Below are positions 3,678 through 5,257 of a stretch of DNA of 64,000 nucleotides, piece after piece. The stretch is from Rhizobiaceae bacterium (GTDB lineage Bacteria > Pseudomonadota > Alphaproteobacteria > Rhizobiales > Rhizobiaceae): positions 717,001 through 781,000 of the forward strand of contig JAILWO010000001.1 in assembly GCA_025698895.1 (NCBI GenBank), written 5' to 3'. The translations under genes were made by a program, and so were the position numbers. The notes beneath the pieces were generated by a model, which was given only the letters and a program-made list of their open reading frames with translations, made no database searches and was not told the DNA's origin. How positions within the stretch are numbered: position 1 is the stretch's first letter; every line of letters begins with the position of its first letter.

Positions 3678-4193
3678 TCAGGCCTTGATGAAGGCGCCTC
3701 TAAGGGCGATCGCGGCCAGGATGGCGCTGGCGACCACGTTCCAGCCTGCGAAGGACAGCCCCAGGAAACGCCCGGCCGCCTGATCGCACGAAGGAGGCAC
3801 AACCTGGTTCAGCTGGCCCAGCACACCGCCCGAGCCGCCGCTGTCGACCGACGGCGAAACGACGCCGCAGTCGGTCGGACCCTGCCACCAGCCCCATTCC
3901 ACACCGGAATGGAACGCGCCGAGATAGAGGCTCCAGAGCATCAGCCCGCCGCCGACGAGCAACAATCCGCGGGTGAGCCATGCAGGTCCTTTCAGCATGG
4001 CGCTGAGAAAAGCGCCCAGCATGACGGGAATGCCGACATAGTAGGGGGTACGCTGCTCCAAGCACAGCATGCAGGGTATATAGCCGCCAATATGCTGGAA
4101 GCCGAGCGCCGTACCTACTGTGATGATCATGCCGGCCGCGACGACCAGCGCCGTCAGGGTCTGGGTGGAGCCGGACGGTCCGGTGAGGGTCAT
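3678..4193 (-). CDS. dsbB: Disulfide bond formation protein B (DsbB family)
   Basis: Inner-membrane protein that reoxidises the periplasmic thiol oxidase DsbA and passes electrons to quinone. The 171-residue protein has four hydrophobic segments. Periplasmic loop 1 carries the cysteine pair C41/C44 (CMLC) and loop 2 the pair C109/C136, the standard DsbB arrangement. The start at 4193 follows AGGTG; a longer reading frame upstream has no ribosome site. No dsbA is present in the window. It is a single gene ending against the PQQ dehydrogenase terminator. Confidence 0.85.
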   Translation of the reverse strand: MTLTGPSGSTQTLTALVVAAGMIITVGTALGFQHIGGYIPCMLCLEQRTPYYVGIPVMLGAFLSAMLKGPAWLTRGLLLVGGGLMLWSLYLGAFHSGVEWGWWQGPTDCGVVSPSVDSGGSGGVLGQLNQVVPPSCDQAAGRFLGLSFAGWNVVASAILAAIALRGAFIKA

Positions 4194-4295: not shown

Positions 4296-4763
4296 CTATC
4301 CGCCCAGTTCCGCCATTTGGGGGATTGCTGCTTTTGACGCCGCGGCGACCGCGCCCGGACAATGCGGGATCTGGTCGAGTCTCGGCCAGGCCTGCGGATA
4401 CATCACCGCCATCCGTGCGCCCATGCGCAGGATGAAATAGGCGCTGTCGCCGACCTTGCCGGTGCCCTTGGCCACGCTGATCTTGCCGTCGACGGTCGGA
4501 TGTCTCGTTTCGCGCTGCTGGGACAGTATGGCCTGAACGAGCGGATCACTGTCCTGCCCGGTGCATTTTCCGGTAATCGCCACATTCTTGTAGATCGCCT
4601 TCGCGGCCGGCGTCGTCAGGTGGAAGTCCCGCGAAAGCGTGTAATACCACTGAACGAAGGATATGTCGGTCGCATTGTTGTTGGCGCCGCCCTTGCCGAC
4701 GGAACTGTCGAGATTCCACATGAACTTGGCGTATCCTGGGGGGCCGTAGACATAGGGTGTCAT
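4296..4763 (-). CDS. Unrecognised protein with a peptidoglycan-binding-like motif pattern
   Basis: I do not recognise this 155-residue protein as a named family. The start at 4763 follows AGGAG seven bases away; the longer open frame runs back through the tRNA gene and is artefactual. There is no signal peptide or membrane segment. The N-terminal pattern SVGKGGANNNATDISFVQ, followed by ITGKC, then PLVQAILSQQ and VDGKIS, resembles the order SVG-GG-N-DV--VQ / G-C--L--AI--FQ / -DG-I seen in some peptidoglycan-binding-like modules carried by phage and type VI secretion proteins. That likeness is my inference from pattern only. It sits alone between dsbB and tRNA-Leu. Confidence 0.6.
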   Translation of the reverse strand: MTPYVYGPPGYAKFMWNLDSSVGKGGANNNATDISFVQWYYTLSRDFHLTTPAAKAIYKNVAITGKCTGQDSDPLVQAILSQQRETRHPTVDGKISVAKGTGKVGDSAYFILRMGARMAVMYPQAWPRLDQIPHCPGAVAAASKAAIPQMAELGG

Positions 4764-4920
4764 TTTCCGCTCCTGACGAAGCCAATCGTCACCCCCGCTA
4801 AAGGCCGCGCGGCTGCCCGAATGTCTGCGAAGCGGATCACATTGGGGCACCGCGACGAGAAGGCGGCTCGGTTCCTTGCAGCACCCATCGCGCGGGAAGC
4901 GGCAGACCCGCGATGTTCGG

Positions 4921-4978: not shown

Positions 4979-5063
4979 GCCCCTGTGGCGGAATTGGTAG
5001 ACGCGCTCGACTCAAAATCGAGTTCCGCAAGGAGTGCTGGTTCGATCCCGGCCAGGGGCACCA
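4979..5063 (+). tRNA. tRNA-Leu (anticodon CAA)
   Basis: The gene folds as a class II tRNA. The acceptor stem is GCCCCTG paired with CAGGGGC, the D-arm GCGGAATTGGTAGACGC, and the anticodon stem CTCGA/TCGAG encloses the loop CTCAAAA, giving anticodon CAA. A long variable arm and the T-arm TGGTTCGATCC follow. The discriminator base is A and CCA is encoded (5061-5063). It reads UUG leucine codons. Confidence 0.95.
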
Positions 5064-5083: not shown

Positions 5084-5257
5084 TCACACGCCGCGCGCCG
5101 ACATCCGCTCGCGCTTGCGGGCAGCGTCGATCATCTCCCGGTTCAGATCATCCTGCGACTGGGCCAACGGGCTGCGCGATTCCAGACGCATGGGCGTCAC
5201 GCTCGCGCCGCAACCGGCAAGCACCGACAGTCCGACGAGAAGAACCAGAAGCTTCAT
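5084..5257 (-). CDS. Small lipoprotein of unknown function
   Basis: A 57-residue predicted lipoprotein. A basic start (MK) and hydrophobic stretch end in the lipobox LAGC, so lipidation is expected at C16. The mature part is about 41 residues, polar and rich in Arg, Asp and Ser, with no recognised domain. The true start at 5257 gives a normal signal; the longer frame upstream does not. It lies 80 bases past rpsP on the same strand and may be co-transcribed with it or separate. Similar tiny lipoproteins are frequent and poorly characterised in Rhizobiales. Confidence 0.65.
   Translation of the reverse strand: MKLLVLLVGLSVLAGCGASVTPMRLESRSPLAQSQDDLNREMIDAARKRERMSARGV

What the first reader, a model, noticed from the sequence alone, without database searches (positions are those of the whole stretch)
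4296..4763. Orphan protein with a peptidoglycan-binding-like motif order
The 155-residue protein shows SVG-GG-N--D---VQ, then G-C, PLVQAI-SQQ and -DGKI in an order I associate with cell-wall-binding modules of phage or secretion-system proteins. It has no signal peptide and no neighbour of that kind, so it could be a stray effector remnant or a new use of the fold.
Basis: inference. Interest (0 to 1): 0.5.

Follow-up and report, generated by a model that had tools for sequence, protein, structure and literature searches.

The report
Orphan wall-binding-fold protein, tracks T6SS
A small unannotated bacterial protein appears to have the fold of a cell-wall-binding domain but no visible export signal, and every relative's genome that could be checked also carries a type VI secretion machine, which makes it a candidate for an overlooked cargo or helper of that machine.

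Summary
The ORF is real: 4296-4763, minus strand, 155 aa, with the motif order described. It is unlabelled in Pfam, NCBIfam, PHROGs and PDB sequences, but not alone: I found a sparse family of solo ~150-aa proteins without visible signal peptide (16 aligned, eight positions invariant). The fold reading holds moderately: in a second-look structural alignment all 8 listed entries are peptidoglycan-binding-domain (PGBD) folds (best Z 7.3), and PG_binding_1 is the Pfam family touched by most members (5 of 16, all below cut-off). Foldseek alone gave nothing significant.

The gene is intact and conserved, so not a remnant. No immunity-like or T6SS neighbour was found, but the genome has a T6SS elsewhere, and 13 of 13 whole genomes tested that hold a clear member have the T6SS sheath gene, against 66 of 294 in the window's family and 46 of 61 in the genus of locus L015. 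Five members sit in the ATP synthase operon, which fits an effector poorly.

Best reading: a new PGBD-fold variant, probably orphan T6SS cargo acting at the wall (0.4). Main rival: a cytosolic protein-protein module (0.33). Secretion and peptidoglycan binding are untested.

The parts
4296..4763 (-). the gene: 155-aa solo PGBD-fold protein without visible signal peptide
4770..4774 (-). AGGAG, likely ribosome-binding site 6 bases before the ATG
   Evidence: upstream string; assignment by eye
4650..4703 (-). residues 21-38, SVGKGGANNNATDISFVQ: family signature leading into the first PGBD helix
   Evidence: V22 G23 N28 D33 Q38 invariant in 16 of 16; helix 31-45 in the model
4563..4565 (-). Cys67, conserved in 12 of 16
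4515..4547 (-). residues 73-83, DPLVQAILSQQ: at the place where the PG_binding_1-like members P0012 and P0014 have GSxTIxAIxxFQ
   Evidence: A7 alignment; YcbB alignment; helix 74-85
4476..4490 (-). residues 92-96, DGKIS: DG invariant in 16 of 16
4356..4388 (-). residues 126-136, WPRLDQIPHCP: C-terminal extension motif with Cys135 (13 of 16)
3678..4193 (-). downstream co-directional dsbB (disulfide bond formation protein); possible operon partner, not shown
   Evidence: PF02600 E 4.1e-30; gene-call start at 4193
4979..5063 (+). tRNA-Leu(CAA), upstream on the other strand; limits the gene on that side

Best explanation
It is a member of an unannotated family of ~150-residue, single-domain proteins with a peptidoglycan-binding-domain (PGBD) fold and no visible signal peptide, found sparsely in Alphaproteobacteria and in two Burkholderiales-type MAGs. 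[quoted passage not shown] Shown here by computation: a real conserved gene, a likely fold, no T6SS or immunity-like neighbour found, and co-presence with a T6SS in all 13 whole genomes tested. Inferred: that it is secreted, that it binds peptidoglycan, and any effect on a target. No catalytic domain was recognised, so if it is an effector it would act by binding or by an undescribed site.
For: Fold: AlphaFold model mean pLDDT 80, pTM 0.81. VIA-align second look: 8 of 157 aligned chains reached Z 2 or more, and all 8 are PGBD-fold entries: CtpB C-terminal domain (4 entries, best Z 7.3, rmsd 2.2, 79 aligned), SleB N-terminal domain 6tci (Z 6.9), 1lbu residues 1-81 (Z 6.6), 5tv7 (Z 6.4), 4xxt (Z 5.8) (that 6tci and 1lbu 1-81 are PGBDs is recalled; for CtpB). 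Sequence bridge: the divergent G964 copy P0012, picked up over positions 10-45 of the family profile at E 5.4e-5, hits PG_binding_1 at E 0.0055; PG_binding_1 is matched weakly by 5 of 16 members, every other Pfam family by 1; the top PDB sequence hit of the profile is the YcbB stretch 263-319 in the same register (E 0.15, not significant). T6SS link: VipB/TssC in 9 of 9 whole genomes and in all 6 carriers among the 61 genomes (2 shared), so 13 of 13 distinct genomes; background 66 of 294 in the window's family (3 of 3 carriers positive, hypergeometric 0.011) and 46 of 61 in the L015 genus (6 of 6, 0.17). Both carriers of close members in the window's family have a TssC of one subtype, seen in 16 of 294 genomes (66% identity or more to the window genome's TssC; chance about 0.003, or 0.008 if the 10 VipB-positive genomes whose TssC I did not read were all of it). 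The divergent copy P0012 lies 4.8 kb from TssK in G964.
Against: Foldseek found nothing significant (best E 1.8) and the tool warns that Z under 8 may mean only a common arrangement. The model of homologue P0009 was poor (pLDDT 65) and matched only CtpB (Z 5.3, 5.1), then Hook domains (Z 3.3, 2.9). PG_binding_1 is never over its cut-off and the window protein itself gets no hit. Among 17 loci no T6SS component was matched by the query set used, and no shared partner that could be an immunity gene was found among flanking ORFs; TssK near P0012 is the one exception seen. Five of 17 loci put the gene in the F1-ATPase operon, an odd place for an effector. The T6SS counts are small and not phylogenetically independent; in the L015 genus alone they are not significant. 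The third carrier in the window's family, G798, has another TssC subtype (48% identity). The chromosome of the Terrarubrum carrier was not tested; its plasmid record has no VipB.
Confidence: 0.4

Rival explanations
1. A cytosolic protein that uses the PGBD fold as a protein-protein or dimerisation module and never leaves the cell. Its partner might be a housekeeping complex; insertion between atpD and atpC suggests steady co-expression with ATP synthase.
For: No visible signal peptide (by eye). Best structural match is the CtpB domain, described as a dimerisation motif resembling PGBDs despite distinct function (passage, PMC3808539). Five close homologues sit in the atp operon: atpD-gene-atpC in L008, L016, L041, just after atpC in L015, L017 (atpC by Pfam for L008, L016, L017 and atpD for L008).
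Against: Sparse distribution (for example 6 of 61 genomes in one genus) is odd for a housekeeping helper; 13 of 13 co-presence with T6SS is unexplained; 12 of 17 loci are not at atp.
Confidence: 0.33
2. A T6SS adaptor or accessory that works inside the producer, for example helping to load a separate effector or helping the machine pass the wall.
For: Same T6SS co-presence; no toxin-like family hit and no recurring immunity-like neighbour.
Against: Not beside T6SS components in the loci compared, P0012 apart; absent from most T6SS-positive genomes (6 of 46 in the L015 genus have it).
Confidence: 0.12
3. A peptidoglycan-binding protein exported by another route, or a phage- or plasmid-derived lysis module.
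For: PGBD-like fold; top viral structure hit is an N-acetylmuramidase, but E 1.1 is not significant.
Against: No visible signal; tblastn of the phage collection found nothing for P0001, P0002 or P0006. Flanks were not searched systematically for integrases or phage genes.
Confidence: 0.08

Closest known systems
PG_binding_1 (Pfam PF01471), PGBD fold as in 1lbu, SleB N-domain, 5tv7
   Same: Predicted helical fold; order VQ ... A[IV]xxxQ ... DG
   Different: No member over the Pfam cut-off; where P0012 and P0014 have DGIxGSxTIxAI the close family has CxGxxxDPLVxAI; C-terminal WPRxDxxxxCP extension; stands alone, without recognised catalytic domain and without visible export signal
CtpB C-terminal domain (Bacillus subtilis)
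   Same: Best structural match, Z 7.3 over 79 residues
   Different: There it is part of a protease and serves dimerisation (passage); here it is a whole protein
Orphan T6SS effectors such as Tme (PMC7046647; start of abstract, three passages)
   Same: Candidate found by comparative genomics and not by neighbourhood
   Different: Tme effectors have immunity partners and a toxin domain with a transmembrane helix (passages); here neither was found and delivery is not shown

Membership tests
PGBD fold / PG_binding_1 (PF01471) | Pfam profile score over the curated cut-off | tested here: not met
   0 families for P0001; 5 of 16 members match, best E 0.0055 with 17.3 bits against 23
PGBD fold / PG_binding_1 (PF01471) | PGBD fold | tested here: met
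   8 of 8 VIA rows are PGBD folds, best Z 7.3; moderate only: predicted model, Foldseek not significant, second model weaker
PGBD fold / PG_binding_1 (PF01471) | binds peptidoglycan | not testable with these tools
   needs a pull-down assay
T6SS effector | a T6SS in the same genome | tested here: met
   13 of 13 whole genomes tested; own cluster has VipB, VgrG domains, and VipA, TssF, TssG, ImpA_N and a ClpB-type ATPase
T6SS effector | gene beside vgrG, hcp, PAAR or in the cluster, or fused to a T6SS marker domain | tested here: inconclusive
   no T6SS match in 17 loci with ORFs of L024-L027, VgrG included, but Hcp and PAAR were not identified among the queries; TssK 4.8 kb from the divergent copy P0012 only. 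Orphan effectors lack this feature (passage)
T6SS effector | adjacent immunity gene (antibacterial effectors) | tested here: not met
   window neighbours are dsbB and tRNA-Leu; no partner recurring across 17 loci except genes of the atp locus and common families. A different immunity gene at each locus is not excluded elsewhere
T6SS effector | T6SS-dependent secretion | not testable with these tools
   needs a secretion assay

The most novel reading that the evidence does not exclude
A new class of T6SS passenger: a small, non-enzymatic, signal-less wall-binding protein without immunity partner, delivered by particular T6SS lineages, with its gene repeatedly placed in constitutive operons such as the ATP synthase operon instead of in T6SS islands.
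Probability: 0.25. Interest if true: 0.75.

Novelty: new variant of a known kind. Interest (0 to 1): 0.5.

Why it matters
If it is T6SS cargo, annotation pipelines would miss it: no Pfam domain over threshold, no T6SS neighbour, no immunity gene. It would show a wall-binding fold being delivered without a recognised enzyme, and a cargo gene sitting inside one of the most conserved housekeeping operons. If it is not cargo, it would be a case of the PGBD fold working inside the cytoplasm, in some genomes beside ATP synthase genes. A secretion assay would decide between the two.

Tried and rejected
Searches without result: Pfam, NCBIfam, PHROGs for P0001; PDB by sequence, best E 1.1; phage collection with P0001, P0002, P0006; plasmid collection beyond the Terrarubrum record; genome contigs with the single sequence, 36 pattern matches and no relative. 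Single-sequence genome searches found only the window's genome at E 0.001 in 41 relatives. PADLOC gave only E 0.038 and 0.023 hits to unrelated models. Foldseek against PDB and viral models gave no significant hit; PGBD entries absent from the list are not thereby excluded.

Hits dropped before counting: L005, a 17-residue match in a phage contig on the strand opposite to a longer phage ORF; G304 and G407 (E 0.0076 and 0.0096, each with a stop inside); G280 (E 5.5e-4; another frame is open through the place); G226 (E 6.0e-4, frame of 102 codons; its flanks were used, its genome was not tested for T6SS); L020, an apparently broken copy in a Steroidobacter MAG, not tested for T6SS. The Terrarubrum carrier is not among the 13 because only its plasmid record was searched.

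Script slip: the label filter for G106 also caught G1060 and G1067, so those two carriers were left out of the group table; they are drawn in the same subclade as the other Bosea carriers.

Ideas rejected: stray remnant (conserved, intact); phage lysis module (no phage relative found); effector-immunity pair (no partner found). A disulfide role with dsbB was considered because two cysteines are conserved (12 and 13 of 16), but the window's dsbB had no match among flanking ORFs of the other 16 loci, so it stays an idea.

Literature: searches (searches listed 15 of 40, 8 of 13, 10 of 29 and 8 of 65 papers). No title or abstract start in those listings was about this family, on a gene between atpD and atpC, returned 0 papers. 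This covers only that library.

Full report
The observation. A GTG at 5087 would lengthen it, but that stretch covers a tRNA-Leu gene; four of five homologues have a methionine in the same column, the fifth a TTG one codon earlier, and an AGGAG lies just upstream. No family in Pfam, NCBIfam or PHROGs and no PDB sequence matched it.

Relatives. A plasmid-collection search gave one relative, a 'hypothetical protein' of Terrarubrum flagellatum (about 30% identity). A two-row profile found 3 carriers in 297 genomes of the window's family (own, G964, G798) and 1 of 398 in a phylum sample (own only). The window's genus holds only its own genome here; in G964's genus 1 of 4 genomes has the gene. A three-row alignment found 6 loci in the genome collection out of 54 pattern matches: two Bosea, a Rhizobiales MAG, a Burkholderiaceae MAG, a Rubrivivax MAG and an apparently broken copy in a Steroidobacter MAG. 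A class sample added G106 and weak hits in G226 and G280 (4 of 289 with own); an earlier single-sequence class search gave 3 of 385, own and two chance-level hits. The genus of L015 gave 6 carriers of 61, one of them with two copies. Sixteen members align; eight positions are invariant in 16 of 16. As translated they are 148-160 residues long. Eight of them, the window protein included, form a close subgroup at 49-55% identity to it.

The fold. The window protein with five homologues was modelled at mean pLDDT 80, pTM 0.81. Foldseek against the PDB gave no significant match (best E 1.8, CtpB). VIA-align on 157 of Foldseek's top chains left 8 with Z of 2 or more, and all 8 are PGBD-fold: CtpB C-terminal domain (4 entries), SleB N-domain, 1lbu residues 1-81, 5tv7 and 4xxt, Z 7.3 to 5.8. 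The tool notes that Z below 8 can be common; the agreement of all rows on one fold is what persuades. A model of homologue P0009 was worse (pLDDT 65) and matched CtpB at Z 5.3 and 5.1, then Hook domains at 3.3 and 2.9. Sequence gives an independent hint: divergent members P0012 and P0014 carry DGIxGSxTIxAIxxFQ and touch PG_binding_1 below cut-off (E 0.0055 and 0.065); 5 of 16 members do so; the top PDB profile hit is YcbB 263-319 in the same register, E 0.15. The fold need not mean wall binding: the CtpB paper describes that domain as a dimerisation motif resembling PGBDs despite distinct function (passage, PMC3808539).

Surroundings. Downstream lies dsbB on the same strand (PF02600), upstream the tRNA-Leu. 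In 17 loci (including the weak G226 place), ORFs over 90 aa from two T6SS regions (L024-L027) matched only transporter, regulator and ligase-type genes, and all-against-all comparison of flanking ORFs within 5 kb showed no recurring partner apart from atp-locus genes and common families. In five loci the gene lies in the F1-ATPase operon: between atpD and atpC in L008 (G964), L016 and L041 with 18-25 bases to atpC, and 159 and 213 bases after atpC in L017 and L015 (atpC by Pfam for L008, L016, L017 and atpD for L008, the rest by similarity). All five belong to the close subgroup of eight. One literature search on this returned 0 papers.

Type VI link. The window genome has a T6SS on another contig: VipB, VgrG domains, VipA, TssF, TssG, ImpA_N and a ClpB-type ATPase. 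VipB was found in 9 of 10 genomes or records carrying a member; the tenth is only a plasmid record. With the L015 genus this is 13 of 13 distinct whole genomes. Background: 66 of 294 in the family and 46 of 61 in the genus; the hypergeometric chances are 0.011 and 0.17. The family samples differ slightly in size (297, 294); all three carriers are in both. The two family carriers of close members have TssC of one subtype, seen in 16 of 294 genomes at 66% identity or more to own TssC. I read 61 of the 109 VipB places, covering 56 of 66 positive genomes, so 16 is a lower bound; the chance is about 0.003 for 16 and 0.008 for 26. The third carrier, G798, has another subtype (48%). In a FastTree of 60 TssC, G798 and G106, holders of the divergent copies P0006 and P0014, are sisters in a different clade from the rest; the Bosea, G1045, G964 and own TssC share a starred 24-row branch, the two Burkholderiales-type ones a neighbouring branch, and G1043 has a further TssC far outside. 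The shuffle test there is weak (37 and 36 of 500), and a naming slip left G1060 and G1067 out of its groups. These genomes are related, so the figures overstate the evidence somewhat. The divergent copy P0012 in G964 lies 4.8 kb from TssK, with a caspase-domain gene and an 828-aa ORF between.

How it may work. Shown by computation: a real family, a likely PGBD fold, T6SS co-presence, no immunity-like partner found. Seen by eye: no signal peptide. Inferred: cytosolic synthesis, loading into the T6SS, action at the wall. The conserved cysteines could pair after reaching an oxidising periplasm, but this is only an idea. The atp-operon placement and the CtpB top match keep a cytosolic protein-protein role as a strong rival.

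Verdict. This is a new variant of a known fold family with an interesting but unproven link to T6SS.

Noticed in passing
L008:7152-7604, L016:8001-8453, L041:7818-8270, L015:8001-8453, L017:8001-8453: Family members inserted in the F1-ATPase operon, between atpD and atpC in three genomes and just after atpC in two; an unusual place for an accessory gene.
   Followed up: partly
L014:2651-4102: In G964 a caspase-domain protein (PF00656) with a weak PG_binding_2-like stretch lies between TssK and the divergent family member P0012.
   Followed up: no
window 3678-4193: dsbB directly downstream of a gene whose family conserves two cysteines; possibly coincidence.
   Followed up: partly
L020:8001-8309: Apparently broken copy of the family in a Steroidobacter MAG, overlapping the end of a 2650-aa repeat-rich ORF on the other strand.
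   Followed up: no
L040:7864-8310: A second, divergent family copy in the genome of L016 (G1044), away from the atp operon; that genome holds two members.
   Followed up: partly
L004:10935-11414 and L039:7360-7800: A GFA-type gene (so annotated in L004) lies within about 600 bases of the family member in two unrelated loci, 34% identical to each other; may be chance, as the type is common.
   Followed up: no
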